Assembly: GCF_021191635.1 (NCBI RefSeq)
Contig: NZ_JAIWPR010000004.1
Location: 62,001 to 126,000 of the forward strand
Direction: 5' to 3'
DNA: 64,000 bases
Origin: Alterluteimonas quercicellularis
Lineage (GTDB): Bacteria; Pseudomonadota; Gammaproteobacteria; Xanthomonadales; Xanthomonadaceae
Shown here: positions 13,142-29,703 of the stretch, piece after piece
Position numbering within the stretch: position 1 is the stretch's first letter
Layout of the letters: each line of letters starts with the position of its first letter
Notes under the pieces: model-generated
What the model was told of the DNA's origin: nothing
The model's database searches: none
Seen by the model: only the letters and a program-made list of their open reading frames with translations
Translations under genes and position numbers: made by a program

Positions 13142-13325
13142 CGGCCCGCGGCCTTCGCCGGCCCCGCTACCGCGTCCCGGCGCGGCAGGGCGGGCCGCAC
13201 GACGGCGGCCGTCCCGTCCACGGGCGTCGGCATCGGCGGAGCGGCGCCTGCCGTCGTCGGCCCGGGCGCCGCCGGCGGCCATCGAACGCGCTAGTCTGGT
13301 GGGCCCGTCTTTCCCGGATGTCCCG

Positions 13326-14513
13326 ATGCCGGTGATCCAGTCCCTGCTCGACACCGACCTGTACAAGTTCACGATGATGCAGGCGGTGCTGCACCAGCAC
13401 CCCGGCGCGCACGTCGAGTACCGGTTCAAGTGCCGCACGCCGGGCATCGACCTGGCGCGCTACATCGACCAGATCGACGCCGAGATCGATCGCCTCTGCG
13501 GCCTGCGCTTCACCGCCGCCGAGCTCGACTACGTTCGCGGCCTTCGCTTCGTCAAGTCCGACTTCGCGGATTTCCTCGGCCTGTTCCATCTCGACCGCAA
13601 GTACATCGACCTGCGACCGTCGGCGACGGTGCCGGGCGAGATCGAGCTGGACATCCGCGGCCCGTGGCTGCACACGATCCCGTTCGAGGTGCCGCTGCTG
13701 GCGATCGTCAACGAGGTCTGGTTCCGCAACACGACGTCGCCGGACTTCGACGAGGGCGAGCGCCGGCTGCGCGCCAAGGCCGCGATGCTGCGCGACGCCC
13801 CGGGGTTCGAGCAGTGCCGGATCGCCGACTACGGCACCCGGCGGCGCTACTCGCGGCAATGGCACGGCCACATGCTGCCGCTGCTGCGCGATGCGCTCGG
13901 CCCGCAGTTCGTCGGCACCAGCAACGTGCACTTCGCACGGCTCTACGGCATGACCCCGCACGGGACCATGGCGCACGAATGGCTGCAGGCGTTCCAGGCG
14001 CTGGGGCCGCGGCTGCGCGACTCGCAAGCCGCCGCGCTCGAATCCTGGGCGCGCGAGTACCGCGGCGACCTGGGCATCGCGCTGTCGGACGTGGTCGGGC
14101 TGGACGCCTTCCTGCGCGACTTCGACATGTACTTCTGCAAGCTGTTCGACGGCGTGCGCCACGATTCGGGCGACCCCTTCGCCTGGGGCGAGCGCATGCT
14201 CGCGCACTTCCGCGGCAACCGGGTCGATCCGGCGGGCAAGATCCTGGTGTTCAGCGACGGGCTCGACATCGACAAGGTCATGCGCCTGTACGACCATTTC
14301 CGCGGTCGCTGCCAGGTCGCCTTCGGCGTCGGCACCCACCTGACCAACGACCTGGGCCCGACGCCGCTGAACATCGTCATCAAGATGGTCCGCTGCAACG
14401 GCCAGCCGGTCGCCAAGCTGAGCGATTCGCCCGGCAAGAGCATGTGCGACGACCCGGGCTACCTGACCTACCTGCGGCAGGTGTTCGGCGTGCCCGCGGA
14501 GGCGGCGCCGTGA
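13326..14513 (+). CDS. pncB: Nicotinate phosphoribosyltransferase
   Basis: 395 aa, the usual length. Catalyses nicotinate + PRPP (+ATP) to nicotinate mononucleotide in NAD salvage. Recognisable are the N-terminal [12 protein letters not shown] motif, RYSRQWHGH around the autophosphorylated His, [14 protein letters not shown], and [10 protein letters not shown] near the C-terminus. The start at MPVIQS matches the family and lies 184 bases after the peptidase gene. TAGTCT at 13292-13297 is a weak possible -10. The last bases overlap the def start (GTGA). Confidence 0.95.
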
Positions 14514-15031
14514 TCCGCCCGATCGTGCGCATGGGCGATCCGGTGCTCAACCGGCCCGCGGCCGCGGTCGAGGCCTTCGACGACGCGCTGCGCGCGCTGG
14601 TCGCCGACATGTGGGAGACCATGGCCGCGGCCGGCGGGGTGGGGCTGGCCGCGCCGCAGGTGGGCGTGGGCCTGCAGGTCATGGTGTACGGCTTCGACCG
14701 CGCCGAGCGCTATCCCGACGCGCCGCCGGTGCCGCGCACGGTGCTGGTCAACCCGTCGGTGGAACCGCTGGGCGAGGCCCGCGAGGGCGGCTGGGAAGGC
14801 TGCCTGTCGATTCCCGGGCTGCGCGGCTGGGTGCCGCGCTGGCGGCGCGTCCGCTACCGCGGGCTGGACGCCGAGGGCGCGCTGCTGGAGGGCGAGGCGG
14901 AGGGCTTCCACGCCCGCGTGATCCAGCACGAGTTCGACCACCTGCAGGGCGTGCTCTATCCGGCGCGGATCGAGGACTTCGCCCGCTTCGGCTTCGCCGA
15001 CGTGCTGTTCCCCGAGCGCCCGCTTCCGTAG
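14510..15031 (+). CDS. def: Peptide deformylase
   Basis: 173 aa from GTG overlapping the pncB stop. Removes the N-formyl group from new proteins. Motif 1 [10 protein letters not shown], motif 2 EGCLSIPG (the Cys is a metal ligand) and motif 3 QHEFDHL (two His ligands and the catalytic Glu) are all present. The C-terminus ends LP at a TAG that is also the TAG of a GTAGGAGCG repeat, so the gene end appears to have been set by that repeat. This may be a second or housekeeping copy; no fmt partner is visible nearby. Confidence 0.94.
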
Positions 15032-15157
15032 GAGCGGGGGGGGGGGCGGGGGGGGGGGGGGGGGGGCGCCGGAAAGAGAGTGTCGCGCGCGCGCGCGCGC
15101 GCGACGCTTTTTCGCCGGCTCCGAAAGAAAGAGCTTCGCGCGCGAGCGCGCTCCTAC
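15028..15157. repeat. Degenerate REP pair with G11-C-G19 and (CG)n tracts
   Basis: GTAGGAGCG begins at 15028 and an inverse copy (TCGCGCGCGAGCGCGCTCCTAC-like) ends at 15157. The left arm has run into G11 (15036-15046), a C and G19 (15048-15066); a CGCG tract of about 20 bases follows near 15084-15103. The poly-G could form a quadruplex and is prone to slippage or assembly error. Confidence 0.85.
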
Positions 15158-15167
15158 GGAAGACGTT

Positions 15168-15716
15168 TTACGGCAGCGGCGGGACGACGACGGTCTCGGC
15201 CTGCGACAGCGACGCGCCCTCGGGCCGCAGCGACAGCCGGCCGCCGTCGATGGCGTCGATGCGGCGCGCGCCGACCAGCTTGGTGCCCAGGCTCACGCCG
15301 GTGAGCACCGGCACCCAGTCGTCGCCCTGCGCGCGCAGCACCGCGAGCTGGCGCGCATAGTCGTTGCCCGGACTGCCGCCGCAGCCGGATTCGGTCCACG
15401 CCGCCACGCCCTCGGCGCGGCCGTCGCCGTCGAGATCCACCTCGAACAGCCGCTCGCCGTCCACCTGGCAGTCCGCCTCGCCGGCGGAGGCCTCGATCGC
15501 GCGGCGGGCGGCCGCCTGCAGCGCCGGCGCCGCCGGGCGCGCGTGTGCGCGCACGTGGGCGAGCGCGGCGCCGCTGAAGTCGAGATCGGCGTCGTCCGCC
15601 GCGGGCTGCGCCGGCGTCGCGGCAGGCGGTGCGGCCGCGGCCTCCTGCGCATGCAGCGCAGCGGCGCATCCGCATGCGGCCAGGCAGAGCAGCAGTGGAT
15701 AGGCGGTCCGGATCAT
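15168..15716 (-). CDS. Hypothetical exported protein, possible lipoprotein
   Basis: 182 aa, function not recognised. The N-terminus is hydrophobic with a LAAC lipobox (Cys15), so it may be a lipoprotein; an Ala/Pro-rich linker follows (about 25-42). The mature part contains DLDGDGRAEGV, a calcium-loop-like segment typical of FG-GAP/VCBS-type repeats, and paired cysteines (ESGCGG and ADCQV). It stands alone on the minus strand between REP-rich spacers, so neighbours give no clue. Confidence 0.65.
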   Translation of the reverse strand: MIRTAYPLLLCLAACGCAAALHAQEAAAAPPAATPAQPAADDADLDFSGAALAHVRAHARPAAPALQAAARRAIEASAGEADCQVDGERLFEVDLDGDGRAEGVAAWTESGCGGSPGNDYARQLAVLRAQGDDWVPVLTGVSLGTKLVGARRIDAIDGGRLSLRPEGASLSQAETVVVPPLP

Positions 15717-15802
15717 CGCAACGCTCCCGCTGTCGACGCGTCATCGCGCGGGCGGAGAGTAGCCAATCCCGCCGCCCGTTGCCTGAGCGGGCGGCTCCAC
15801 GC

Positions 15803-15983
15803 GTAGGAGCGCGCTCGCGCGCGACCATGGTCGTTGGGGAAGACCGGGCGGGCGCGCGCGCGCTCCAAAGCGGGGACCGGCGGTCGGGCGCGCTTCGGCG
15901 CCGGCGGGGGCTGTGCGCGTTTCGCCCGCTCCGAGCGTTCCCTGAAACCCATCTTGTAGGAGCGCGCTGGCGCCAGCGGCGCT
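15803..15983. repeat. Two GTAGGAGCG REP copies in the spacer before the pyrF stop
   Basis: GTAGGAGCGCGCTCGCGCGC at 15803-15824 and a diverged copy in the same orientation at 15956-15983. The spacer 15717-15982 otherwise shows no gene. Confidence 0.75.
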
Positions 15984-16816
15984 CAGCGCGCGGCGTTCAG
16001 CGTGTCGCGCAGGCCGCGCGCGGCCGCGGCGGCGGCTTCGGCATAGTCGTCCCCGGCGGAGGCGTACAGGATCGCGCGCGAGGAACTGACCATCAGGCCG
16101 GTGCCGTCGGCGCTGCGGGCGTTGCGCACCACCGCCTCGGCGTCGCCCCCCTGCGCGCCCACGCCCGGCACCAGCAGCGGCAGCTCGCCGACGATCGCGC
16201 GCACTTCGCGCAGTTGCTCCGGCCAGGTGGCACCGACCACCAGCGCGCAATTGCCGTGGCCGTTCCAGTCGCCGGCGACCCGTTCGGCCACGCGCTGGTA
16301 CAGCGGGCGGCCGCCGCGGCCGTCGTCGGACACGATCAGGTCCTGCAGGTCGCCGGCGCCCGGGTTCGACGTGCGGCACAGGATCACCACGCCGCGGTCG
16401 GCGCGCTCCAGGAAGGGCTCGAGCGAATCGCGGCCGAGGTAGGGGTTGGCGGTGACCGCATCCGCGCCGTAGCGGTCGAAGGCCTCGGCGGCGTAGTGCC
16501 GGGCGGTGCTGCCGATGTCGCCGCGCTTGGCGTCCAGGATCACCGGGATGCCGGGATGCGCGGCGTGCAGGTGCGCGATCAACCGCTCCAGCGCGTCCTC
16601 GGCGCCGAGCGCGGCGAAATGCGCGATCTGCGGCTTGAACGCGCAGGCGTAGGCCGCGGTGGCGTCGGCGATGTCGCGGCAGAACGCGAACACCGCGTCC
16701 GGGTCGCCGGCGAAGCGCGCCGGGAACTTCGCCGGCTCCGGATCGAGGCCGACGCAGACCAGGGTGTCGGCGTCGCGCCAGCGCGCCCGCAGGGCCGGTA
16801 CGAAGGAGGTCGTCAT
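15983..16816 (-). CDS. pyrF: Orotidine 5'-phosphate decarboxylase
   Basis: 277 aa, type 2 OMP decarboxylase, which converts OMP to UMP at the end of pyrimidine synthesis. Visible: [14 protein letters not shown] at the start, FKPQIAHF, the catalytic [13 protein letters not shown] motif (Lys and Asp residues), NPYLGRDS and the phosphate-binding [12 protein letters not shown]. Length fits the long bacterial type. The start lies 18 bases from a 27-bp inverted repeat that separates it from the upstream ettA. Confidence 0.95.
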
Positions 16817-16834
16817 GCGTCCGCGTCCTCAGGT

Positions 16835-16915
16835 AACCGGGGTCAGAGTCGACTTTTCGCCTTCGATCCCTCCAGGAGAGGCTTCCGGGGCGAAAAGTCG
16901 ACTCTGACCCCGGTT
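16835..16915. repeat. 27-bp perfect inverted repeat between ettA and pyrF
   Basis: Arms 16835-16861 and 16889-16915 are perfectly complementary (core GGGGTCAGAGTCGACTTTT) around a 27-base loop. The right arm ends five bases before the ettA stop codon. It can form a very stable hairpin in RNA of either strand and may end ettA transcription. It resembles dispersed palindromes seen in related genomes, possibly mobilised by REP-associated transposases (inference). Confidence 0.9.
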
Positions 16916-16919
16916 TTGT

Positions 16920-18581
<1,662 letters not shown>

Positions 18582-18656
18582 GGGGGCTCCGGATGGGCGT
18601 CGCCTGGGCGCCCGCCGGCCTGGACAGGGGCGGGGAGCGGCAGGCGGGGATGCGCC

Positions 18657-18662
18657 ATTGTA
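18657..18662 (-). promoter_or_regulatory. Candidate -10 box for ettA
   Basis: Reads TACAAT on the minus strand, about 75 bases before the ettA ATG, in the gap after the accessory locus. It resembles the -10-like boxes before secA and rnpB. No good -35 is visible. Confidence 0.45.
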
Positions 18663-18688
18663 GCGTAGCCGCCGCGGCCGGCCGGCCC

Positions 18689-19147
18689 TCAACCGGCCCG
18701 GCCGGCGACGACCGCGAGCGCCCCGCCGGCGTTGAGCGCCAGGCCGTAGGGCGCGGCGACGAGCGGGATTTCCCGCACGGCCGCGGGGAGACGGGCGCGC
18801 AGCGCCGCGTAGGTCGCCGCCGCGCCCCGGCGCCAGGCGTCCACCGGTCCCAGCACCAGGACCGGCCCCGGCGCGCCGGCGTCGTAGCCGGCCGCTTGCA
18901 GCAGGCCGATGGCCGCGTCGACGCCCGCCGGCGACACCGGCGCGAGGGTCGGGGAAGTACGCGAGAGGCAGAGCGCGAAGGCGCGCCCGCCGGGCAGCGG
19001 CGCGGCCAGGCCCAGGCAGGGGCCGAGCCGGGAGAAGCGCAGGCCGACGACGGCGCGGCGCCCGCACGGCGGCGAGACCGCGGCCACGGCCCACTGTCGT
19101 TCCCCGATCGCCAGCGGGTCGGCGGCCGGGACGAAAGCGTAGGGCAT
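18689..19147 (-). CDS. Unrecognised protein at the end of the reb locus
   Basis: 152 aa, no family recognised. Start chosen at MPYAFVPAADP; an in-frame ATG 41 codons earlier would run through a hairpin-containing spacer and is less likely. The sequence is Ala/Gly/Pro-rich with predicted alternating strands and helices, no signal peptide, no membrane segment and no catalytic motif. It is the last minus-strand gene of the locus, 129 bases past the final RebB gene, before the ettA promoter. Partnership with the Reb proteins is inferred only from position. Confidence 0.55.
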   Translation of the reverse strand: MPYAFVPAADPLAIGERQWAVAAVSPPCGRRAVVGLRFSRLGPCLGLAAPLPGGRAFALCLSRTSPTLAPVSPAGVDAAIGLLQAAGYDAGAPGPVLVLGPVDAWRRGAAATYAALRARLPAAVREIPLVAAPYGLALNAGGALAVVAGRAG

Positions 19148-19240
19148 GGGATGCCTGCGAAGCGTCGGGGACCCGCGATCGTGCCATGGCTCGGCGGCCG
19201 GGTCGCGCCTGGAAAGCATGGGGTCCCTCTCGACCGGGCG

Positions 19241-19270
19241 ATGCCCCCCTCCCCGCGGGAAGGGGGGCAT
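19241..19270. terminator. Stem-loop after the distal rebB gene
   Basis: ATGCCCCCCT (19241-19250) pairs perfectly with AGGGGGGCAT (19261-19270) around CCCCGCGGGA. It lies seven bases past the rebB stop; no T-run follows, so it may be an mRNA end stabiliser rather than a strict terminator. Confidence 0.5.
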
Positions 19271-19276
19271 TCGCGG

Positions 19277-19609
19277 TCAGCGGCCGCTGCTGGTGAAGGC
19301 CTGCAGCACGGTCAGCAGGCTGGTCAGGTTGTCGGACACGCCCGACTGGCCGACCTTCTCGGTGGCGCCGGCATCGGACATCGTGTCGAGGCTGTAGATC
19401 TGCATCACGCCCTGGTTGGCCGCGGCCTGGGCCAGGGTGTTCTGCTGCTGCTGGGCGGCGACGGCGTTCTCGAACAGGATGCCGGTCGAATGCGCCAGCG
19501 ACTGGTAGATGGTGCCGACGGCGATGGCGGGCGCTTCGCCGACCACCTTGACGTTGGACTGGGTGACGGCATCGGTGACCATCGGGTTGACGGTTTCGGG
19601 GCTGGGCAT
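19277..19609 (-). CDS. rebB: RebB-family R-body ('killing trait') protein, 110 aa
   Basis: 110 aa. Residues about 5-60 match the RebB pattern: VTDAVTQSNVKVVGEAPAIA, then IYQSLAHSTGILFENAVAAQQQQNT. RebB-family proteins are small structural subunits of R-bodies, coiled protein ribbons that extend and puncture membranes, first known from Caedibacter endosymbionts of Paramecium. The C-terminal half (about 60-110) is a variable helical tail. A good AAGGAG site lies seven bases before the ATG. It is the most promoter-distal of the recognisable Reb genes in this minus-strand run. Confidence 0.88.
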   Translation of the reverse strand: MPSPETVNPMVTDAVTQSNVKVVGEAPAIAVGTIYQSLAHSTGILFENAVAAQQQQNTLAQAAANQGVMQIYSLDTMSDAGATEKVGQSGVSDNLTSLLTVLQAFTSSGR

Positions 19610-19735
19610 GGTGTCGCTCCTTCGGATGGGCCTCGTGGTTCGCCGGAGGCGGTCGGCGTCCTATCGACGCGCGCGGGGGGCGCGCGTGAAGGGGAGGGAG
19701 GGCGCATGGGCCCGAAGGCCTGTCGTCGGCAGACC

Positions 19736-20155
19736 CTAGGCGCGCGTCCGCGAGGACGACCGCGCCTTCAGGGACTGCAGGGCCTGCAGGAGCCCGTCGA
19801 CGCGCGCGCGGGCGGCCGGGTCGGCGGATCCGGAGGCCGTCGCGTCCAGGGTCTCGATCAGGTCGACCAGGGTCGCGTCCTCGGCGCGCGCGACGCGACT
19901 GGTCTCGTCCGCGTTGCGGCGCGCGAGTTCGACCAGCGCCAGCGTTCCGTTGCGTACCTTTGCGTAGGCCTCCGCAGCCTCGCGCTTGCGCTCGGCCAGC
20001 GTCGCCAGCGCCGCGATCGCTTCCGGCAGCACGCGTTGCAGGGTCTGCTGCATGCTGCGCGCGGCGTTTGCGGCGTTTGCGGCGTTTGCGGCGGTGCGGG
20101 CATTCGCGGCATTGCCGGGGGGAGGGGGCGGTGGCGGCGGCTGGGCAACGCTCAT
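19736..20155 (-). CDS. Poly-proline/NAA-repeat helical protein of the reb locus
   Basis: 139 aa. The N-terminus has eight consecutive prolines (residues 6-13), then NAANARTAANAANAANAAR repeats (encoded by tandem GCGTTTGCG units near 20066-20091), then a predicted long helix or coiled coil to the end (MQQTLQRVLPEAIAALATLAERKREA; LVELARRNADETSR; VDGLLQALQSLKAR). No family recognised; not a clear RebB. It begins 17 bases after the preceding Reb-like gene with its own AAGGA site, so it is very likely cotranscribed. It could be an assembly scaffold or a diverged R-body subunit. Confidence 0.65.
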   Translation of the reverse strand: MSVAQPPPPPPPPGNAANARTAANAANAANAARSMQQTLQRVLPEAIAALATLAERKREAAEAYAKVRNGTLALVELARRNADETSRVARAEDATLVDLIETLDATASGSADPAARARVDGLLQALQSLKARSSSRTRA

Positions 20156-20172
20156 GGCAGGGATCCTTGGGG

Positions 20173-21054
20173 TCAGGGCAGCGAGGCGGTGTCGTCGCCG
20201 ATGGTCTTGACGGAGGTGCCCGCGGTCTGGCTGACCTTGCCGTAGGCTTCCACCGCGGCGGTGACCATGCCCTGGACCGCGTCCAGGGTCGGCTTCTCGA
20301 GGCCGGCTTCGGCGGGATTGGCGACGGCCTTCTGCGCGATCACGGCCTGCGCCGCCAGCGCGATCTGCATGACCGCCTCCATGTACTGCGCCGCACCTTG
20401 TACGGCATGCCCGGCGCTCTGCGTCGCCAGCACCTGCGGCGGCGTCTGCACCAGCAGCGGCAGGTACTGCTGGTTCTGCGCGTTGGCGTAGGCGACTGCC
20501 TGGACGATGCGGGGGTTGAGCGCCGAGGTGTCCGGCGGCGCCGGCGGCGAGGCGCCCGCTGCGGGCGTCGCGGCCGCTGCGGCGGAAGCGGGGGGATCGT
20601 CTGCGCCGGCGTTGTTGTCGCTGCCGGTGTCGCTGTCGGTGTCGGTGCCGGTGCCGGTGGACGTCGCCGCGTCCGGCTCCGCGGGTTCGGGCGCATGCGC
20701 GGCGGCCGCACCGGTTTCCGGGGTCGGCGTGGGCGGCGGGGCCTGCAGCGATGGCGGCGCCGGCTCCGGCGTGTCGGACGCGTCCGTGTCCGCGCCGGGG
20801 TCCGCCTCCGCATCCGCGTCCGCGGCGGTGGCGGTGGCGGTGGCGTCCTGCTGCGACGTGCCCGGCGGGGCCTGCAGCGATGCCGGTGCCGCGTCCTCCT
20901 GCGCCGACGCCGATGCGGGCGCTGCCGCTTCCGGTGCGGGCGCGGCAGCGGCGTCGGCCGCCGCGGCGGGCGCGGCGGCGCGATCCTCGCCGGCGGTGCC
21001 GCCCGGCTGCGCCCCGCGCCCGCCGCGTCCCCACAACCTGGGCTTCCAGCTCAT
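20173..21054 (-). CDS. Reb-like protein with long low-complexity acidic/Ala/Pro/Thr N-terminus
   Basis: 293 aa. Residues about 1-175 are low-complexity (A, P, T, D, E; two direct SLQAPP segments; short TATATA and GTGTDTDSDTGSD runs). Residues about 178-293 form a helical domain resembling RebB-type subunits: NPRIVQAVAYANAQNQQYLP, then ALAAQAVIAQKAVANP, and AAVEAYGKVSQTAGTSVKTI. A strong GAGGAGG site precedes the ATG. Family assignment of the C-terminal domain is by pattern and context, not search. The N-terminal extension is far longer than in simple RebB proteins and could be a disordered brush on the polymer. Confidence 0.7.
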   Translation of the reverse strand: MSWKPRLWGRGGRGAQPGGTAGEDRAAAPAAAADAAAAPAPEAAAPASASAQEDAAPASLQAPPGTSQQDATATATAADADAEADPGADTDASDTPEPAPPSLQAPPPTPTPETGAAAAHAPEPAEPDAATSTGTGTDTDSDTGSDNNAGADDPPASAAAAATPAAGASPPAPPDTSALNPRIVQAVAYANAQNQQYLPLLVQTPPQVLATQSAGHAVQGAAQYMEAVMQIALAAQAVIAQKAVANPAEAGLEKPTLDAVQGMVTAAVEAYGKVSQTAGTSVKTIGDDTASLP

Positions 21055-21074
21055 GTCCGGGCCTCCTCAGGCGC

Positions 21075-21311
21075 TCACGCTCCGCTCTCGGCGATGTTCA
21101 TGATCAGCTGGCAGGCCTTGGAGACCACCGCGGTGCTGATCTGGTTCATCGCGTGCTGGCTGTGCACGGCGTTCTGCACCGCCAGCCCCGTGGCATGGCT
21201 GACCACCTGGTAGAGCGAGGCGATGGCCTGCGCGGGGGCTTCGGCGACCACCTTGACGTTGGTCTGGGTGACGGCGTCGGTGATCTGCGCGTTGACGGTG
21301 GTGTCGGCCAT
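21075..21311 (-). CDS. rebB: RebB-family R-body protein, 78 aa
   Basis: 78 aa, nearly all RebB domain: ITDAVTQTNVKVVAEAPAQA, then SLYQVVSHATGLAVQNAVHS and a short tail. It is clearly paralogous to the 110-aa protein encoded downstream (same VTQxNVKVV...EAPA...LYQ...HATG pattern). Two such paralogues plus a larger partner recall the small-subunit composition of known R-body loci. It follows the sigma-factor gene by 70 bases, making it the first structural gene of the run. Confidence 0.88.
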   Translation of the reverse strand: MADTTVNAQITDAVTQTNVKVVAEAPAQAIASLYQVVSHATGLAVQNAVHSQHAMNQISTAVVSKACQLIMNIAESGA

Positions 21312-21381
21312 GGTCGGGGTCTCGGGATCGTGCGGGCTGTGGCCCTAGGACGCGGCAGGCAGCGCCGCGTGAATCGCGAAG

Positions 21382-21942
21382 CTAATCGCTTACGCCGGGC
21401 GCCCGGCGCAGGCGCTCGCGCAGCAGCTGCACGCGCTTGCGCGCCAGCGGCTGGGAAATGCCGAAGGCCTGGGCGATGTCGGCGTAGGAACGTTCCTCGC
21501 GGAAGCGCATGCGGAACAGCCGGCGCTGGTCGGACGGCAGCCGCGCGACCTCGGCCATCACCGCGGCCAGCGTCTCCTGCACCTGCAGCGCCTGTTCGTG
21601 GCCCGGCGCGGCGGTCGCGCCCGCCTGCTCCTCCACGTCGGCGCTGCGGTCGAGCTGCGCGTTCTCCTGCGCGCGCCGCCGGCAGCGGCTGACGAACTCG
21701 TTGTTGAGCGCGAACAGCAGGAACGCCCGCGGCCGCCGGATCTGCGCGCGATGCTGGCGCAGGTAGTCGAGCGTCTTGAGGACGGTGGAGGAGAGGATGT
21801 CCTCCGCCTCGTCCACGTTGCCCCGGGTCAGCCGGATCGCCCTGCAGCGCAGCACGATGCGGTCCTGCTCCCAGTTGCCCCAGATATCCTCCTGCGTCGC
21901 GGCTTCGCCTGCTTGGCCCGCCATTCCCTCGTGACCGGACAT
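21382..21942 (-). CDS. ECF-like RNA polymerase sigma factor of the reb locus
   Basis: 186 aa from MSGHEGMAGQAG, whose ATG is preceded by AGGGAAGGG. The frame extends further upstream, but that extension is Arg/Pro-rich and lacks a ribosome site. Region 2 is at about residues 24-95 (DEAEDILSSTVLKTLDYLR; RPRAFLLFALNNEF). Region 4 is at about 125-180 with the helix-turn-helix RSYADIAQAFGISQPLARKRVQLLRERL. It matches sigma-70 family ECF-type factors. No anti-sigma gene is adjacent. It lies directly upstream of, and in line with, the Reb genes, so it probably drives them. Confidence 0.88.
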   Translation of the reverse strand: MSGHEGMAGQAGEAATQEDIWGNWEQDRIVLRCRAIRLTRGNVDEAEDILSSTVLKTLDYLRQHRAQIRRPRAFLLFALNNEFVSRCRRRAQENAQLDRSADVEEQAGATAAPGHEQALQVQETLAAVMAEVARLPSDQRRLFRMRFREERSYADIAQAFGISQPLARKRVQLLRERLRRAPGVSD

Positions 21943-22063
21943 TCCCTTCCCTCTGAAGTCGTCCCCGGGGCCTCTTGCCCCGGGCAGCGCCGGACACGAC
22001 GCCGCAGGCGGCCGCTCGTGAAGCCCGGCCGCAGTGGAACCGGGGCGCCTCGAAAGAGGAATG

Positions 22064-22106
22064 CGGAAAACGAGAACGCCGCCCCGCATGAATCGGAGCG
22101 GCGTTC
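22064..22106 (-). terminator. Terminator-like hairpin after the 482-aa gene
   Basis: On the minus strand GAACGCCGC pairs with GCGGCGTTC (22074-22082 with 22098-22106), followed by TCGTTTTCC. It separates the 482-aa gene from the sigma-factor gene and implies a separate promoter for the latter within 21943-22063. Confidence 0.55.
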
Positions 22107-22135
22107 CCGAACCGGGCGCGCATCCGCGCGAAGGG

Positions 22136-23584
22136 TTATGGGTTGAGCAGGCGCTGCAGTGCGACAAGGCGCTCGGGCGTGAGCCAGGACGGGGGCGGTC
22201 GGCTCGGCTCGGGCGATGGCGCGCCGAGCTGCGGGGAATCGGTCGGCGCGTCCGCGACGCCGCCGCCTTGCGGCAGCGGCCCGTCCGCAGCCGCGGTCGC
22301 GGTCGCGGTCGCGGTCGTCGCTGCCTCCAGGCTGTCGAAGAAGTTGGCGCCAGCGAGGTCCCTGTTGAACTCGCGCAACTCGAGCGAGTTGCGCTTGACC
22401 AGCTCGGAGAGGGCGATGGGCCCGGTGTTCTGGCCGACGGCCGGCAGGCCCAGGTCGTTCTCGTAGACCAGGGCCGCCGCCAGCAGGCTCGGATCGCCCT
22501 TCTGGTAGAACCTGCCTTCGATCAGGCTCTGCTGCCGGCGGGTGTCGCTGAAGCGCGGATACTGCGTTCCCAGTTGGAACAGGGCCTGCGGCGGGTCGGG
22601 CGGGCGCGGGGCGGGCACCAGCAGCGCGATCTCGCAGTCGGCGTAGGGGTTGTCCTGGATGTCGATGAAGTCGCGGACGATCGCCAGCCGGCGGCCGCCG
22701 AACTCCGCGTCCAGCGTCTGGTTGCCGCCCAGCAGGATCTTGCCGATCGGATCCTCGTCGCGTTGCGTGGCGACGCGATTGATCAGCGCCGTGTAGTCGT
22801 AGAGATCGGCGCGCCCCAGCGGAGAGTCGCCGACGCCGCCATGGCCGTACACGGCGGGGGAGGCGAACGAGAGCGCGAGCATGCATTCCAGCAGCGAGTG
22901 GTGGTACTGCAGCACCATCGAGGCGACGGGAAAGAGCGCCAGTCCATCGCCGATGGCGGCGTCGGCGTCTCCCGGCATGTGGTCGGGATCGGGCGCGGGT
23001 TCGCGGCCGTCGAACCGGCTGAGCAGGAAGGCGAGCGCCGCCAGGCTGTCGGTCGTGGTGCCGGAGATGTCGGCTCCGAGGTAGGGGCCGTAGAAGCGTT
23101 CCATGTACTTCACGACGCTGCGGTCGAGCAGGCGATTCTTGAAGATGCCGAGCTGCGGCAGTTCCTCGGAATCGAAGTCCGCGATCTCGCGCCGGGCGCG
23201 GTTCGCCGACCGGTCGAACGCCTGCTCGTTGCGCAGGCCGGCGGCGAACGCCTGCCAGGCCTCGCCCGCCCCGCCCTTGTTGAGATAGTCGCCGAGCTCG
23301 CGCAGGGCGTCGCCGATCGCGAAGAGGTCGCGGTAGCCGTTCGGGTTCGAGAACCGCTGTAGCGCGCTCTTGGCGGCGCGCAGATGCTCTGCGCCGTTGC
23401 CTTGCGTGTCGGGGATCGCCCCGAACGTCGCCACGATCCGGTCGATCAAGCGCCTGCCGGCGCTGCCTTCCGCGCCTGCGCCGAAGGGGGCGTCCAGCAC
23501 CTCCAGCATGGTCGAGATATGGGCCGAGCGCATGCGGTTGCGCGCGTCCTGGACGGCTTTTCCGTAGATCACGATGGCGGTCAT
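22136..23584 (-). CDS. Unrecognised 482-aa protein upstream of the reb sigma factor
   Basis: 482 aa, no family recognised. Begins MTAIVIYGKAVQDARNRM with an AGGAGA site. It is soluble-looking, mixed alpha/beta, with no signal peptide or clear membrane span. The middle has a hydrophobic helical patch (ALFPVASMVLQYHHSLLECML). Residues about 415-482 form a Thr-Ala (TATATATA) and Pro-rich tail ending LTPERLVALQRLLNP. It shares low-complexity TATA/Pro runs with the Reb-like 293-aa protein. It is the first minus-strand gene of the locus and is divergent from glyA. A role as regulator, assembly factor or toxin-like partner would be a guess. Confidence 0.7.
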   Translation of the reverse strand: MTAIVIYGKAVQDARNRMRSAHISTMLEVLDAPFGAGAEGSAGRRLIDRIVATFGAIPDTQGNGAEHLRAAKSALQRFSNPNGYRDLFAIGDALRELGDYLNKGGAGEAWQAFAAGLRNEQAFDRSANRARREIADFDSEELPQLGIFKNRLLDRSVVKYMERFYGPYLGADISGTTTDSLAALAFLLSRFDGREPAPDPDHMPGDADAAIGDGLALFPVASMVLQYHHSLLECMLALSFASPAVYGHGGVGDSPLGRADLYDYTALINRVATQRDEDPIGKILLGGNQTLDAEFGGRRLAIVRDFIDIQDNPYADCEIALLVPAPRPPDPPQALFQLGTQYPRFSDTRRQQSLIEGRFYQKGDPSLLAAALVYENDLGLPAVGQNTGPIALSELVKRNSLELREFNRDLAGANFFDSLEAATTATATATAAADGPLPQGGGVADAPTDSPQLGAPSPEPSRPPPSWLTPERLVALQRLLNP

Positions 23585-23756
23585 GGCGGGTCTCCTGCGG
23601 GCCTGGGTGGCCGGGCCCGGCGGTACGCCGCGGCGAGGCGACGGGGCCCGGCCAGCGCCGGCGCTCCGGGCGCGGTGCCTTGCAGGGACGCGCGGGGGGC
23701 GGGGCCGTGAAGGCCGCGGGGGGCGGTGCCGGAGCGCGGCGTCCGCGGCGGCGCGC

Positions 23757-23762
23757 TAGAAT
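23757..23762 (+). promoter_or_regulatory. Candidate -10 box for glyA
   Basis: GCTAGAATCGCG contains TAGAAT about 40 bases before the glyA ATG; the same GCTAGAAT arrangement precedes the FMN riboswitch at 27670. No clear -35 is visible. Confidence 0.5.
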
Positions 23763-23800
23763 CGCGGTCTTTCCGGCCCTGCCGTCTTCTGGAGCGAGCG

Positions 23801-25069
23801 ATGTTCCCGCGCGATGCCCGTATCGAAGGTTATGACCCTGAACTGGCCGCGGCCATCGCCTCGGAGGCCCGCCGCCAGGAGGACCACGTCGAGCTGATCG
23901 CCTCGGAGAACTACGCCAGCCCGCGGGTCATGGAAGCGCAGGGCAGCCAGCTGACCAACAAGTACGCGGAAGGCTACCCGGGCAAGCGCTACTACGGCGG
24001 CTGCGAGTACGTCGATGTCGCCGAGCAGCTGGCCATCGACCGCGCGAAGCAGCTGTTCGGCGCCGACTACGCCAACGTGCAGCCGCACTCCGGCTCGCAG
24101 GCCAACCAGGCGGTGTACTTCGCCCTGTTGCAGCCGGGCGACAGGATCCTCGGCATGTCGCTGGCCCACGGCGGCCACCTGACCCACGGCGCCAAGGTCA
24201 ACGCCTCGGGCAAGCTGTTCGATGCGGTCCAGTACGGCGTGAACGACGAGGGCCTGATCGACTACGACGCCGTCGAGCGGCTTGCGCTGGAGCACCGGCC
24301 GAAGATGGTGGTGGCGGGCTTCTCGGCCTATTCGCGCCACATCGACTGGGCGCGCTTCCGCGCCATCGCCGACCAGGTCGGCGCCTGGCTGTTCGTGGAC
24401 ATGGCGCACGTGGCCGGCCTGGTCGCCGCCGGCGCCTACCCGGACCCGGTGCCGCACGCGCACGTGGTCACCTCGACCACCCACAAGACCCTGCGCGGCC
24501 CGCGCGGCGGCATCGTCGTCGCCTCTCGCCAGGGCGCGGGCGAGCACTTCGACGAGATCGTCAAGAAGCTGCAGTCGATCGTGTTCCCGGGCATCCAGGG
24601 CGGCCCGCTGATGCACGTCATCGCAGCCAAGGCGGTGGCCTTCAAGGAAGCGCTGGAGCCCGAGTTCAAGACCTACCAGGCGCAGGTGGTGGAGAACGCG
24701 CGGGCGATGGCGAAGACCATCGTCGAGCGCGGCTACCGGATCGTCTCCGGCGGCACCGACAACCACCTGATGCTGGTGGACATGATCGGCAAGGGCGTCA
24801 CCGGCAAGGCCGCCGAGGAAGCGCTGGGCCGCGCCCACATCACCGTCAACAAGAACGCCGTGCCCAACGACCCGCAGAAGCCGTTCGTGACCTCCGGCCT
24901 GCGCATCGGCACCCCGGCGGTGACCACCCGCGGCTACACCGAGGCCGACTGCACCGAACTGGCCGGCTGGATCTGCGACGTGCTCGACGCCCCCGACGAC
25001 GAAGCGGTGATCGCCCGCGTCCGCGACGCGGTGACCGCGCAGTGCCGCAAGTACCCGGTCTATGGCTGA
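23801..25069 (+). CDS. glyA: Serine hydroxymethyltransferase
   Basis: 422 aa, full length. Converts serine and tetrahydrofolate to glycine and 5,10-methylene-THF using PLP. Visible: [50 protein letters not shown], the Schiff-base lysine in [15 protein letters not shown], and [14 protein letters not shown] near the end. The start at [12 protein letters not shown] follows a GGAG site; a longer in-frame start is not family-like. The gene runs toward nrdR, separated by a GGGAATC-type repeat. Confidence 0.97.
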
Positions 25070-25073
25070 GGCG

Positions 25074-25170
25074 GGAATGGGGAATCGGGAATCGGGAATT
25101 GCTCAAAGCGTTTAAGCTCCGCTCTCGGCTTTCCGATTCCCCACTCCCGACTCCCGATTCCCGGCTCCCC
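25074..25170. repeat. GGGAATCGGGAAT-type repeat, copy 1 (glyA-nrdR)
   Basis: A plus-strand run of GGGAATSGGGAAT units (25075-25099) and the inverse run (TTCCGATTCCCCACTCCC...) at about 25131-25165 form a long imperfect stem. The right arm ends directly at the nrdR start codon. Confidence 0.9.
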
Positions 25171-25704
25171 ATGCACTGCCCCTTCTGCCAGCACACCGAC
25201 ACCCGCGTGATCGATTCGCGCGTGTCCGAGGACGGCGCCACGATCCGGCGCCGGCGCGAGTGCGAGGCCTGCGGGGAGCGCTTCTCCACGCTCGAGACCA
25301 TCGAGCTGAAGCTGCCGGTGATCATCAAGTCCGACGGCCGCCGCGAGCAGTTCGATGCCAAGAAGCTGCGGGTGGGCTTCGACCGCGCGCTGCAGAAGCG
25401 GCCGGTGTCGGAGGAGCAGATCGAGGCCGCGGTGCGCGCGGTGGTCCACGCGGTGCGCATGAGCGGCGAGCGCGAACTGCCCTCGATCCGGGTCGGCGAG
25501 TTCGTGATGGCCGAGCTGCGCAAGCTCGACCACGTCGCCTACGTGCGCTTCGCCTCGGTGTACCGGGCGTTCGAGGACGTGGCCGACTTCCGCGAGGAGC
25601 TCGACCGGCTCGAGCGCGACCTGCCGGGCGAGGCGCAGCTGCCGCTGCTCGGCGGCGAACTGGTGCCCTTCGCCAAGCCGCCGGACCGGCGCGGGCGCCG
25701 GTGA
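25171..25704 (+). CDS. nrdR: Transcriptional repressor NrdR
   Basis: 177 aa. N-terminal zinc ribbon (Cys3, Cys6, Cys31, Cys34) followed by an ATP-cone domain ([17 protein letters not shown] to about residue 140). NrdR senses nucleotide state and represses ribonucleotide reductase genes. Start at MHCPFCQH; longer in-frame starts would be encoded by the preceding repeat and are rejected. The glyA-nrdR-rib order is familiar in proteobacteria. Confidence 0.96.
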
Positions 25705-25750
25705 GGCCGGCCGCGGCGGGCGCACCGGCGCGCGCCGGGAGGGCCGTGCG

Positions 25751-26860
25751 ATGAGCGCGCCCGGTTTCTCCGTTGCCGATCATGCCCACATGGCCCGCGC
25801 CCTGCGCCTGGCCGAGCGCGGCGCCTGGACCACGCGGCCGAATCCCATGGTGGGCTGCGTGCTGGTCCGCGACGGCGAGGTCGTCGGCGAGGGCTGGCAC
25901 CAGCGCAAGGGCGGGCCCCACGCCGAGGTGTTCGCGTTGCGCGCCGCCGGCGACCGCGCCCGCGGCGCCACCGCCTACGTGACCCTGGAACCCTGCGCGC
26001 ACACCGGCAGCACCGGCCCGTGCGCGGACGCGCTGCTGGAGGCGGGCGTCGCGCGGGTGGTCGCGGCGATGCGCGATCCGTTCCCGCAGGTCGACGGCGC
26101 CGGCTTCGAGCGCCTGCGCGCGGCCGGCGTCGAGGTCGGGTGGGGGCTGATGGAGGTGCAGGCGCGCGCGCTCAACCGCGGCTACCTGTCGCGGCTGGAG
26201 CGCGGCCGGCCGTGGCTCCGGGTCAAGCTGGCGTGCAGCCTCGACGGCCGCACCGCGATGGCCGACGGCGATTCCAAGTGGATCAGCGGCCCCGCCTCGC
26301 GCGCCGACGTGATGCGCTGGCGCGCGCGCAGCGGCGCGATCCTGACCGGCCGCGGCACCGTGCTCGCCGACGATCCCGCGCTGACCGTGCGGCTGGCGCC
26401 GGAGGCGCCGTGCGTGCCGCCGCTGCGCGTGGTCCTGGACGCCGGGCTGGCGTCGCTGGCGCGCGAGCGCGTGCGCGATGCGTCCGCGCCCACGCTGTAC
26501 CTGCACGCCGAGGGCGCCGTGCTGCCGGACGGCGTCGTCGTCGACCATGCCGCGCTGCCGTGCCGCGACGGCGGGCTGGACCTGCACGCCGCGCTCGCGC
26601 TGCTGGCCGCGCGCGGGATCGGCGAGGTGCAGGTGGAGGCCGGCCCGGTGCTGTCGGGCGCCTGGCTGCGCGCGGGCCTCGTCGACGAGTTGCTGCTGTA
26701 CATGGCGCCGGTGCTGCTGGGCGAGCGCGCCCGGCCGCTGTTCGACGGCCTGGGCATCGACGCGATGACGGACCGCTTCGGCCTGCGGGTCGTCGAGACC
26801 CGCCGCATCGGCGACGACCTGCGCTGGCGGCTGCGGCCGGCGGCCGAGGCGTCCGCATGA
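25751..26860 (+). CDS. ribD: Bifunctional riboflavin biosynthesis deaminase/reductase RibD
   Basis: 369 aa. The N-terminal zinc deaminase domain has H57-A-E59 and PCAHTGSTGPC (Cys82, Cys91). The C-terminal reductase domain begins about residue 150 (LRVKLACSLDGRTAMADGDSKWISG) and has VEAGPVLSGAWL near the end. It carries out the second and third steps of riboflavin synthesis from GTP. The stop overlaps the methyltransferase start (ATGA). It lies upstream of the FMN riboswitch and so is not under that element. Confidence 0.96.
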   Translation: MSAPGFSVADHAHMARALRLAERGAWTTRPNPMVGCVLVRDGEVVGEGWHQRKGGPHAEVFALRAAGDRARGATAYVTLEPCAHTGSTGPCADALLEAGVARVVAAMRDPFPQVDGAGFERLRAAGVEVGWGLMEVQARALNRGYLSRLERGRPWLRVKLACSLDGRTAMADGDSKWISGPASRADVMRWRARSGAILTGRGTVLADDPALTVRLAPEAPCVPPLRVVLDAGLASLARERVRDASAPTLYLHAEGAVLPDGVVVDHAALPCRDGGLDLHAALALLAARGIGEVQVEAGPVLSGAWLRAGLVDELLLYMAPVLLGERARPLFDGLGIDAMTDRFGLRVVETRRIGDDLRWRLRPAAEASA

Positions 26861-27618
26861 ACGACGGCGCCGGGCGCTTCGCCGACCACTTTTCAGGCGT
26901 CGCGGAAGGCTATGCCGAGGCGCGTCCGGAGTACCCCGACGCGCTGTTCGACTGGATCGCCGCCGTCGCGCCGGCGACCGCGCAGGCCTGGGAGCCGGGC
27001 TGCGGCAGCGGCCAGGCCAGCCGCAGCCTGGCCGCGCGCTTCGACGCGGTGCTGGCGACCGATCCCAGCGCCGCGCAGATCGCCCGCGCGCGGGGGCCGG
27101 CGAACGTCCGCTTCGCGGTCGAGCCGGGCGAGCGCTGCAGCCTGGGCGACGGCGCCGCCGATGTGGTCTGCGTCGCGCAGGCGCTGCACTGGTTCGACCG
27201 GCCGGCGTTCTTCCGCGAGTGTGCCCGCGTGCTGCGCCCGCGCGGCGTGCTGGTCGCCTGGGGCTACCAGGACATGCTGATGCCCGGCGACGTGGCCGAG
27301 GCGGCGCGTCCGCTGCTGGAGGCGATCCGCGGCGACTGGCCGGCCGGGCGCGCGCTCGTCGATTCCGGCTACGCCGGCTTCGACTGGCCGTTCGAGGCGC
27401 TGGCGGCGCCGCCCTTCGACTTGGCCGCCGAGTGGCCGCTGGCGCGGCTGCTGGCCTACCTGGGCACCTTCTCCGCGGTGCAGCGCCATCGCGCGCGCAC
27501 CGGCGCCGACCCGGTCGCCGCGCACGCGCCGGCCATCGCCGCGGCCTGGGGCGACGCCGCCACGCGCCCGGTCCGCTGGCCGCTGTTCGTGCACGCCCGC
27601 CGCCGCCGCCCGGAGTGA
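26857..27618 (+). CDS. Class I SAM-dependent methyltransferase
   Basis: 253 aa. Motif I is WEPGCGSGQASRSLAARF, then the ATDPSAAQI acidic strand, and the VVCVAQALHWFDRPAFFRECARVLRPRGVLVAWGY region, typical of Methyltransf_11 proteins related to yeast Crg1/trans-aconitate methyltransferase-like enzymes. Its substrate is unknown. The overlap with ribD (ATGA) makes it part of the ribD transcript; no known step in riboflavin synthesis needs it. Confidence 0.85.
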   Translation: MNDGAGRFADHFSGVAEGYAEARPEYPDALFDWIAAVAPATAQAWEPGCGSGQASRSLAARFDAVLATDPSAAQIARARGPANVRFAVEPGERCSLGDGAADVVCVAQALHWFDRPAFFRECARVLRPRGVLVAWGYQDMLMPGDVAEAARPLLEAIRGDWPAGRALVDSGYAGFDWPFEALAAPPFDLAAEWPLARLLAYLGTFSAVQRHRARTGADPVAAHAPAIAAAWGDAATRPVRWPLFVHARRRRPE

Positions 27619-27671
27619 ACCGCCGCAACGCATCGTCCCGCCCCGCGTCTGCCGCGGGCGCCGGGCGTTGC

Positions 27672-27677
27672 TAGAAT
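27672..27677 (+). promoter_or_regulatory. Candidate -10 box upstream of FMN riboswitch
   Basis: TAGAAT inside GCTAGAATGCG, 30 bases before the riboswitch 5' end, so the leader RNA would start just ahead of the aptamer. No clear -35. Confidence 0.5.
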
Positions 27678-27706
27678 GCGCGCGCCGGTTCGCCGGCCAC
27701 GAATGT

Positions 27707-27843
27707 CTTCAGGGCGGGGTGGAAGTCCCCACCGGCGGTAGGCGCGGCGACGCGCGAGCCCGCGAGCGCTGCCGGCCACCGCCGGCAGGTCAGCAGACCC
27801 GGTCCGAGTCCGGGGCCGACGGTCACAGTCCGGATGCGAGAAG
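27707..27843 (+). ncRNA. FMN riboswitch (RFN element)
   Basis: The conserved RFN core is visible in order: CTTCAGGGCGGGGTGGAAG, TCCCCACCGGCGGTA, AGCCCGCGAGCG, CCGGCAGGTCAGCAGACCCGG, GACGGTCACAGTCCGGATG, AGAAG. The closing GAGAAG pairs with CTTC at the 5' end. It binds FMN and should lower expression of the following ribE-ribBA operon. The 101 bases between the aptamer and ribE hold C/G-rich pairing segments that could mask the ribosome site; no clear U-run terminator is seen, so translational control is more likely. Confidence 0.95.
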
Positions 27844-27944
27844 ACGACCTGCGCGCGGCGCCGCCGCGCGTGCCGTCGCGTCCGGACGCATTCCCCATCG
27901 ATCGCTGACCGCGCGGGCGCTCCCCGCCGGAGGGAGAAGGACGG

Positions 27945-29671: not shown

Positions 29672-29703
29672 ACTAGCCGGTCAGGCGTAGGGAAATCCAG
29701 GTC

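What the first reader, a model, noticed from the sequence alone, without database searches (positions are those of the whole stretch)
18689..23584. R-body (reb) locus with its own sigma factor and several unassigned partners
Two proteins (19277-19609, 21075-21311) carry the RebB pattern VTQxNVKVV...EAPA...LYQ...HATG. They sit in one minus-strand run with a larger Reb-like protein, a poly-Pro helical protein, an ECF-like sigma factor immediately upstream, and unrecognised 482-aa and 152-aa proteins at the two ends. R-bodies are protein ribbons that unroll to break membranes. Known reb loci are small-subunit clusters, but the make-up here (long disordered subunit, private sigma factor, no visible anti-sigma) may be a distinct or incompletely described version. 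Suggested model: the sigma factor switches on a polymer that lyses or punctures a predator, host or sibling cell.
Basis: partly seen in the sequence, partly recalled or inferred. Interest (0 to 1): 0.85.

Follow-up and report, generated by a model that had tools for sequence, protein, structure and literature searches.

The report
Sigma-controlled R-body cluster with new partner
These genes look able to make coiled protein ribbons called R-bodies under their own gene switch, and the same switch site also stands before a large undescribed protein that has so far been seen only in genomes with ribbon genes, often far away from them.

Summary
In detail: two RebB proteins (PF11747, 98.1 and 91.1 bits, cut-off 24) share a minus-strand run with an ECF sigma gene, a Reb-like protein, a helical protein and a 482-aa protein, in a Luteimonas genome. 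A private sigma factor beside reb is already known (Raymann's HP2.3, FecI2 in PA14, Labrenzia). New here: (1) a promoter-like site, KTCACR-N15-CGTC, stands before all four transcription units and nowhere else in the window; it, or its CGTT form, stands before reb genes in other families and classes. (2) The 482-aa protein is a conserved family. All 13 genomes with a clear copy carry RebB. In one alphaproteobacterial family all ten copies lie away from reb, yet nine have a perfect upstream site and one has one mismatch. (3) Following the site alone found a second unlinked family shared by Pannonibacter and Pseudovibrio. (4) The 482-aa protein's C-terminal tail resembles that of small reb-cluster proteins. 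I read it as a co-regulated R-body-associated protein, possibly cargo. Against: most reb genomes lack it, and genome-wide the site has a real chance background. No structure could be predicted; nothing is shown experimentally.

The parts
22136..23584 (-). HP482: 482-aa co-regulated, reb-co-occurring protein; conserved body, disordered linker, short C-terminal tail
   Evidence: Alignments of 13 and 12 sequences, 34-50% identical to the window copy, the Ruegeria one 24%; all 13 genomes with a clear copy carry RebB
23687..23711 (-). Promoter-like site before HP482 (102 nt to ATG)
21382..21942 (-). ECF-type sigma factor (186 aa, ATG start inferred)
   Evidence: TIGR02937 and Sigma70_r4_2 over cut-off; start; tree clade 99/99 with sigma factors of five other HP482 genomes
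21998..22022 (-). Promoter-like site before the sigma gene (55 nt to ATG), consistent with autoregulation
21075..21311 (-). RebB protein, 78 aa (short rebB)
   Evidence: PF11747 E 4.7e-26
21349..21373 (-). Promoter-like site before the short rebB (37 nt to ATG)
20173..21054 (-). 293-aa Reb-like protein, long low-complexity N-terminal part; HP2.1 / secondary group S4 type (the group that holds RapA)
   Evidence: Same family as a 139-295-aa gene in 14 other family loci, after the short rebB in 10 of them; distant Reb relation; HP2.1/S4/RapA link inferred from paper text, not from sequence
19736..20155 (-). 139-aa helical protein with poly-Pro start, in the place of HP2.2/F3 of other clusters
   Evidence: hhalign to the ~190-220-aa alphaproteobacterial counterpart E 3e-6, from that to F3 E 3e-4 (probability 41); direct to F3 not significant
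19277..19609 (-). RebB protein, 110 aa (long rebB)
   Evidence: PF11747 E 3e-28
19666..19690 (-). Promoter-like site before the long rebB (56 nt to ATG)
18689..19147 (-). 152-aa protein of a small family that co-occurs with reb; no site of its own
   Evidence: 25 of 395 family genomes have a match, own included; Burkholderia reb-linked 148-aa relative at profile E 1.9e-12

Best explanation
This is an R-body (reb) locus of the sigma-factor type. The ECF sigma factor most likely reads a promoter with -35-like KTCACR and -10-like CGTC, 15 bases apart, and so switches on four units: itself, the short rebB with the 293-aa and 139-aa genes, the long rebB, and HP482. Autoregulation could make expression all-or-none, so that few cells make ribbons. 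RebB proteins would polymerise into a coiled ribbon, the 293-aa protein would bind it (as RapA does in PA14), and HP482 would join the ribbon through its C-terminal tail, as cargo or as an end or anchoring piece. Shown by computation: the genes, the site and its conservation, the site before unlinked HP482 genes, co-occurrence of HP482 with RebB, the tail likeness. Inferred: that this sigma factor reads the site, ribbon formation in this species, the docking role, any killing function.
For: RebB matches. TTCAC-N15-GCGTC: 4 hits in 64 kb, 0.18 expected, none of 100 shuffles reaches 4, one before each of the four units. KTCACR-Nx-CGTC: 4 window hits at x = 15, 2 in all at the ten other spacers 10-20. 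Upstream regions of HP482, sigma and rebB in seven genomes: 21 of 25 match 9 of 10 letters or better at spacer 15, one more meets the looser form, three do not within 200 nt. In 14 usual family clusters the CGTT form (score 16, the highest seen, of 18 possible) stands before 12 of 26 long rebB genes, second copies included, that is in 12 of 14 loci, and 6 of 10 short ones, against 1 of 159 other genes. Of 166 alphaproteobacterial upstream regions 14 reach the full score, all HP482, reb or sigma. HP482 in 10 of 87 genomes of one family, RebB in 40 of 87, all 10 RebB-positive (Fisher p 2e-4); sites of these 10: 9 perfect, 1 with one mismatch; of the six first seen after the pattern was fixed, 5 and 1. 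A second unlinked family behind the site in two genera. Sigma clade 99/99. Tail rank test p 1.5e-6. PA14 FecI2 is required for rebP1 expression, seen in 0.26% of cells; Labrenzia alexandrii, with an ECF-sigma/reb cluster, shows R-bodies by electron microscopy.
Against: HP482 is dispensable: 30 of 40 RebB-positive genomes of that family lack it and their clusters look alike. P-values treat related genomes as independent. The strict site has a chance background: own genome 6 hits, reversed control 2, three of the 6 outside the locus. With a looser pattern seven genomes have 3-8 hits and 2-9 control hits; in three of them (G515, G516, G517) the control has more. The sigma gene itself carries the site in only 11 of 22 alphaproteobacterial clusters called and 0 of 10 usual family clusters, so autoregulation is not general. 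No site within 200 nt before the sigma gene or second long rebB of Pseudovibrio; the Xanthomonas HP482 site lies 183 nt out. Some HP482 tails score near zero and the Ruegeria homologue lacks the tail. No structure was obtained.
Confidence: 0.78

Rival explanations
1. HP482 is a regulator of the sigma factor (anti-sigma or activator), not part of the R-body. It stands where a sigma partner gene often stands, directly upstream.
For: Directly upstream of the sigma gene in the window, L. aquatica and Xanthomonas sp. GPE 39; no other anti-sigma visible; sigma regulators are often under their own sigma's promoter (general knowledge).
Against: Away from the sigma-reb cluster in all 10 HP482 genomes of one alphaproteobacterial family, and absent from 30 of the 40 RebB-positive genomes there. 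In Ruegeria pomeroyi it sits inside the run of reb-cluster genes. No Pfam match and no clear membrane segment.
Confidence: 0.2
2. An ordinary Raymann Group 2 reb cluster; HP482 and the 152-aa gene are chance neighbours.
For: Sigma, Reb-like protein and RebB are the standard set; HP482 is in only 2 of 30 RebB-positive family genomes.
Against: Same order in three genomes of two genera; unlinked copies elsewhere with the same site; all 13 HP482 genomes have RebB.
Confidence: 0.05
3. A decaying reb locus that no longer makes ribbons: one long rebB where others have two, no Crp-type activator in the locus, a diverged HP2.2-like gene, a diverged 152-aa protein.
For: Usual clusters of the family carry two long rebB genes and a Crp-type gene. 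The window's 152-aa copy differs at one of the near-invariant columns.
Against: All frames are intact and four exact sites remain; L. aquatica and Xanthomonas sp. GPE 39 keep the same reduced set. Alphaproteobacterial clusters show no match to the Crp-type profile among the genes next to them either, and Labrenzia, with an ECF-sigma/reb cluster, makes R-bodies.
Confidence: 0.12

Closest known systems
Raymann 2013 Group 2 reb synteny (PMC3583457; section 11 and passages read; figures not seen)
   Same: RebB proteins, a Reb-associated protein of HP2.1 type, a sigma factor (HP2.3)
   Different: No Crp-type HP2.4 in the locus; the HP2.2 place holds a shorter diverged protein; HP482 fits none of the partners named in that section by size
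P. aeruginosa PA14 reb cluster: RebP1/P2, RapA, FecI2, RcgA (PMC8322103, passages read)
   Same: Sigma factor beside reb genes; RapA is put in secondary group S4 by Dorr 2026 (passages), whose description of S4 fits the 293-aa protein
   Different: RcgA is also needed in PA14 and no Crp-type gene lies in this locus; PA14 sequences could not be compared here
Labrenzia alexandrii DFL-11 reb cluster (PMC3764935, passages read)
   Same: ECF sigma, Reb proteins of 76-122 aa parted by four hypothetical genes, R-bodies seen by microscopy
   Different: The passages read name neither a promoter site nor an HP482-like gene
FecI2 regulon of PA14 (PMC4362757, passages read)
   Same: A de novo motif for each sigma factor studied and a 28-gene primary FecI2 regulon were reported
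   Different: The motif is a figure not held here, so whether it equals KTCACR-N15-CGTC/T could not be checked

Membership tests
RebB family (PF11747) | Match over Pfam's curated cut-off | tested here: met
   98.1 and 91.1 bits, cut-off 24
R-body forming locus | Coiled ribbons in cells | not testable with these tools
   Needs electron microscopy
Raymann Group 2 synteny | HP2.3 sigma factor beside reb | tested here: met
   Sigma gene directly upstream of the short rebB here and in 11 other of 31 stretches with reb; sigma family matches
Raymann Group 2 synteny | HP2.1-type protein | tested here: inconclusive
   293-aa protein is one family with the Reb-like gene of 14 other family loci; the Burkholderia member is 209 aa, the HP2.1/2.2 size; no HP2.1 record was compared
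Raymann Group 2 synteny | HP2.2-type protein | tested here: inconclusive
   139-aa protein links to F3 only through the alphaproteobacterial counterpart
Raymann Group 2 synteny | HP2.4 Crp-type regulator in the locus | tested here: not met
   No member of the Crp-type family F5 in the window's 12000-30000 stretch or the L. aquatica stretch. The rest of the genome was not searched
Raymann Group 1 synteny | HP1.1 (~360 aa) homologous to HP482 | tested here: not met
   Azospirillum 359-aa reb neighbour, taken as HP1.1 by size and place: no hit to the seven-sequence HP482 profile up to E 1, E 0.54 to the two-sequence one
ECF sigma factor | Sigma region 2 and region 4 | tested here: met
   TIGR02937 and Sigma70_r4_2 over cut-off; region 2 alone below its cut-off

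The most novel reading that the evidence does not exclude
R-bodies carry exchangeable payloads. HP482 and the unrelated 732-809-aa reb protein (F23) are alternative large proteins that dock on the ribbon through one shared C-terminal tail, and the reb sigma factor co-expresses payloads with the ribbon even when their genes lie elsewhere in the genome; the 337-352-aa family behind the same site would be a further one. This would supply candidates for the missing R-body toxin or anchoring part.
Probability: 0.25. Interest if true: 0.85.

Novelty: new variant of a known kind. Interest (0 to 1): 0.6.

Why it matters
RebA, B and C suffice for ribbons in E. coli but not for killing (Raymann 2013), so the partner that does the damage is an open question. 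A simple promoter-like rule, KTCACR-N15-CGTC/T, lets one look genome-wide for unlinked members of the R-body regulon, as here for HP482 and a second family. That adds a search by co-regulation to the search by gene neighbourhood and names concrete proteins to look for in purified ribbons.

Tried and rejected
HP482 replaces the Crp-type activator: rejected, since alphaproteobacterial clusters show no Crp-type gene beside them with or without HP482 and Ruegeria has both. HP482 as HP1.1: rejected. HP482 homologous to F23: no (hhalign E 0.19 and 0.38). HP482 on plasmids by direct search at E 1e-5: none. RebB (78-aa one) in phage records at E 1e-3: none. PHROGs and PADLOC: nothing for HP482 or the 152-aa protein; both RebB match phrog_32040, function unknown. 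PDB sequence search with HP482 and with the 152-aa family: only hits of E 0.16 or worse. Sites outside reb and HP482: I looked at 22 (18 of the loci and four more in the own genome). Six are intergenic within 200 nt before a called gene; two of these genes are related (see report), the other four stay unexplained; gene calls in the own genome's stretches are partly unreliable. 152-aa relatives: with corrected starts, 18 family relatives and the Burkholderia one show no full-score site, one scores 17 (the first count had several wrong starts). Structure prediction: wanted for HP482, never accepted. Literature: searches (20 of 34 listed in 11, 20 of 420 in 105) and the readings showed no paper naming HP482, unlinked reb-regulon members or the site; figures and supplements were not seen.

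Errors of mine on the way: the sigma start was first taken as 21939, it is 21942; the Xanthomonas sigma gene was first translated in a wrong frame (tree), corrected, and its start is one base off. Gene calls miss or lengthen some genes.
Full report
What is there. The minus-strand run 23584-18689 holds, in reading order, HP482 (482 aa), an ECF-type sigma factor (186 aa from ATG 21942, start inferred), a short RebB (78 aa), a 293-aa protein with a long low-complexity N-terminal part, a 139-aa helical protein, a long RebB (110 aa) and a 152-aa protein. It lies between a divergent glyA-like gene and an ABC-F (ettA-like) gene; these two names are from recall of the sequences. RebB is certain. The genome (4.5 Mb, G000) has only these two RebB genes.

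How common. RebB occurs in 30 of 149 genomes of the family (29 over the cut-off), 4 of 52 of the genus and 3 of 321 of the class, own genome included. HP482 occurs clearly in 2 of 149 of the family (a third, weak match of 64 residues in G116 is left aside) and 1 of 321 of the class. Gene models of 33 stretches (32 fetched, one from the window; some genomes give two; 31 show reb; at least three are cut short by contig ends) give the usual family cluster: sigma, short RebB, a Reb-like protein mostly of ~150 aa, sometimes a 732-809-aa protein (F23) and a 67-91-aa protein, an F3 protein of 148-257 aa, two long RebB, and a Crp-type regulator (Pfam checked on one Crp-type member). Twelve of the 31 have the sigma gene just before the short RebB. 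The other same-genus genomes with reb, G097 and G190, have this usual cluster with the Crp-type gene. The window and L. aquatica do not: they lack the Crp-type gene and a second long RebB and begin with HP482.

HP482 in other genomes. A scan of 84,980 species genomes with two short peptide patterns of the Luteimonas HP482 pair, hence incomplete, gave six loci: L. aquatica, a Roseibium MAG, two Pannonibacter, Xanthomonas sp. GPE 39 and Pseudovibrio hongkongensis. In Xanthomonas sp. GPE 39 the gene order is that of the window, HP482 to long RebB (its sigma gene was read from the sequence and translated). In the four alphaproteobacteria no reb gene was found among the genes called within 10 kb on either side. 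Yet all six genomes have RebB. In the family of the Pseudovibrio genome HP482 is in 10 of 87 genomes and RebB in 40 of 87; all ten HP482 genomes are RebB-positive (Fisher p 2e-4, relatedness ignored). In all ten the two lie on different contigs of drafts or 190 kb or more apart. With the window, L. aquatica and Xanthomonas that makes 13 of 13. A more distant homologue (E 5.7e-29 in a small database) lies inside the reb run of the Ruegeria pomeroyi megaplasmid.

A shared promoter-like site. By eye I saw TTCAC and GCGTC fifteen bases apart before the reb genes of the window and of Xanthomonas. A search then gave four window hits (0.18 expected; none of 100 shuffles reached 4), one before each of HP482, sigma, short RebB and long RebB. 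Only spacer 15 behaves so: 4 hits of KTCACR-N15-CGTC, 2 in all at the ten other spacers between 10 and 20. In 25 upstream regions from seven genomes, 21 match 9 of 10 letters or better at spacer 15 and one more fits the looser form; the misses are the Pseudovibrio sigma gene, its second long RebB, and the Xanthomonas HP482 gene, whose site lies 183 nt out. These include the solitary HP482 genes of Roseibium, Pannonibacter (two close species) and Pseudovibrio. Six further HP482 genomes of that family were first seen after the pattern was fixed: five have a full-score site and one has one mismatch; for all ten it is nine and one. Among 166 upstream regions of alphaproteobacterial genes around HP482 and reb, 14 reach 18 and all are HP482, reb or sigma genes. 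The usual family clusters have TTCACR-N15-CGTT before the first long RebB in 12 of 14 loci and before 6 of 10 short ones, against 1 of 159 other genes, and before none of 10 sigma genes. Ruegeria and Burkholderia clusters carry the site too (with the annotations). In 26 further stretches of that alphaproteobacterial family (20 from genomes without HP482, 6 with it) I count a full-score site before 21 of 23 called short RebB, 20 of 23 first long RebB and 11 of 22 sigma genes; three stretches (L224, L231, L232) have no or only one unplaced RebB called and are left out of the RebB counts. Limits: in whole genomes the pattern has a background. Own genome, strict form: 6 hits, reversed control 2. 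Looser form in seven genomes: 3-8 hits, controls 2-9, with more control than true hits in three. So the claim rests on place, not on rarity. That this sigma factor reads the site is inferred from their joint occurrence and from PA14, where FecI2 is required for rebP1 expression.

A second unlinked family. Of 22 sites outside reb and HP482 that I looked at, six are intergenic and within 200 nt before a called gene. Two of these genes, a 337-aa one in Pannonibacter carbonis (61 nt) and a 352-aa one in Pseudovibrio (41 nt), are related: 20% identity over 244 residues, BLASTP E 2e-8 for the pair, phmmer 2.7e-6 among 1309 proteins. The other Pannonibacter has the same gene behind its own site. Neither has a Pfam match. 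The site alone thus led twice to one unlinked family. Whether it goes with reb elsewhere could not be tested. In the own genome one such site stands 39 nt before a 353-aa gene followed by a 367-aa gene; the latter resembles a PI-PLC X domain only below cut-off (11 bits, cut-off 23.1). This may be chance.

Descent. A tree of 19 reb sigma factors puts the window, L. aquatica, Xanthomonas sp. GPE 39, Roseibium, Pannonibacter and Pseudovibrio on one side of a branch (99/99) against 13 others, among them the two same-genus ones and Ruegeria (long branches are flagged). So the window type of cluster is closer to alphaproteobacterial ones than to those of its own genus, which points to transfer between classes. 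HP482 is somewhat low in G+C (0.699; window 0.737, standard deviation of 4.3-kb windows 0.019), weak support.

What HP482 may do. It has no Pfam, NCBIfam, PHROGs or PADLOC match and no PDB match worth the name, and no clear membrane stretch. Its most constant parts read KYMERFYGPY-GADISGTTTD and MVLQYHHSL-E. After a Pro/Ala-rich linker it ends in a short stretch of the form L-x-P-x-x-L-x-A-L-x-x-L-L. A like ending closes the small 67-91-aa proteins of usual clusters and, in one genome (G134), F23 itself, which there lies upstream of the sigma gene as HP482 does in the window. A profile of seven such endings, none from HP482, ranks 11 HP482 tails above 782 other C-termini (p 1.5e-6; best E 0.0037; three score below 1 bit and one is not found; the tails are related to one another; left out: seven training tails, nine duplicates or copies, the Ruegeria row and one near-copy row). 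Hence the payload or docking model. It is a model: F23 and HP482 share no detectable homology, the alphaproteobacterial clusters show no F23 and mostly come from genomes without HP482, and the Ruegeria protein lacks the tail.

The other proteins. The 293-aa protein belongs with the Reb-like gene of these clusters; Dorr 2026 describes secondary group S4 with a long Pro- and charge-rich N-terminus and counts RapA in it, and RapA was found with R-bodies in PA14. I infer the equivalence; no PA14 sequence was at hand. The 139-aa protein matches its alphaproteobacterial counterpart and through it, weakly, F3. The 152-aa protein has matches in 25 of 395 family genomes, own included. Five of these besides the own genome were also in the RebB-tested 149 and all are RebB-positive; two of the five matches are weak (52 residues in G116; one with a stop in G061), the p of 2e-4 assumes that all 149 were among the 395, which I could not check, and relatedness is ignored. 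A profile of 18 relatives without the window copy finds a 148-aa Burkholderia pyrrocinia protein two genes from a RebB (E 1.9e-12 in a small database); B. arboris has it about 1 kb from a RebB as well. So it too is probably linked to R-bodies, though without a site of its own.

Against the literature. Sigma factors beside reb are known, Crp-type regulators too, and a FecI2 motif exists in print as a figure that I could not see. In the passages read and in five paper searches I saw no mention of HP482, of unlinked reb-regulon members, or of the site. Dorr 2026 states that it left aside the partners without Reb homology. I therefore rate this a new variant of a known kind, with an undescribed and testable partner family.

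Noticed in passing
18689-19147; L194-L212, L152:8096-8542: The 152-aa family has a near-invariant Cys and His (F-x-S-C-I-G ... I-H-L); recalled resemblance to Cys/His enzyme folds such as CheD, not tested. The window copy is diverged at one of the two.
   Followed up: partly
L133:1587-2597, L141:405-1460, L239: A 337-352-aa family of unknown function behind the reb-type site, unlinked to reb, in Pannonibacter (two) and Pseudovibrio.
   Followed up: partly
L149:325-2554 (own genome, C79): A reb-type site 39 nt before a 353-aa and a 367-aa gene, the latter faintly PI-PLC-like; may be chance.
   Followed up: partly
L039, L045, L050, L054, L058, L060, L104: A large reb-cluster protein (F23, 728-809 aa) with no Pfam match in the two members scanned; in L058 it carries the small-protein tail and lies upstream of the sigma gene.
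   Followed up: partly
L038, L040, L044, L049, L053, L059, L066: Lone RebB genes without this sigma factor in one conserved, different neighbourhood of the family.
   Followed up: no
L057, L061: Clusters with many RebB genes and no sigma factor of this type.
   Followed up: no
L037, L043, L048: Reb clusters that look partly decayed: fragments upstream of sigma in L037, no sigma or short RebB called in L043 and L048.
   Followed up: no
PMC13430693 against PMC5527310: Dorr 2026 calls Azorhizobium RebR a tetR-type regulator, while the original paper assigns it to the Crp-Fnr superfamily.
   Followed up: no
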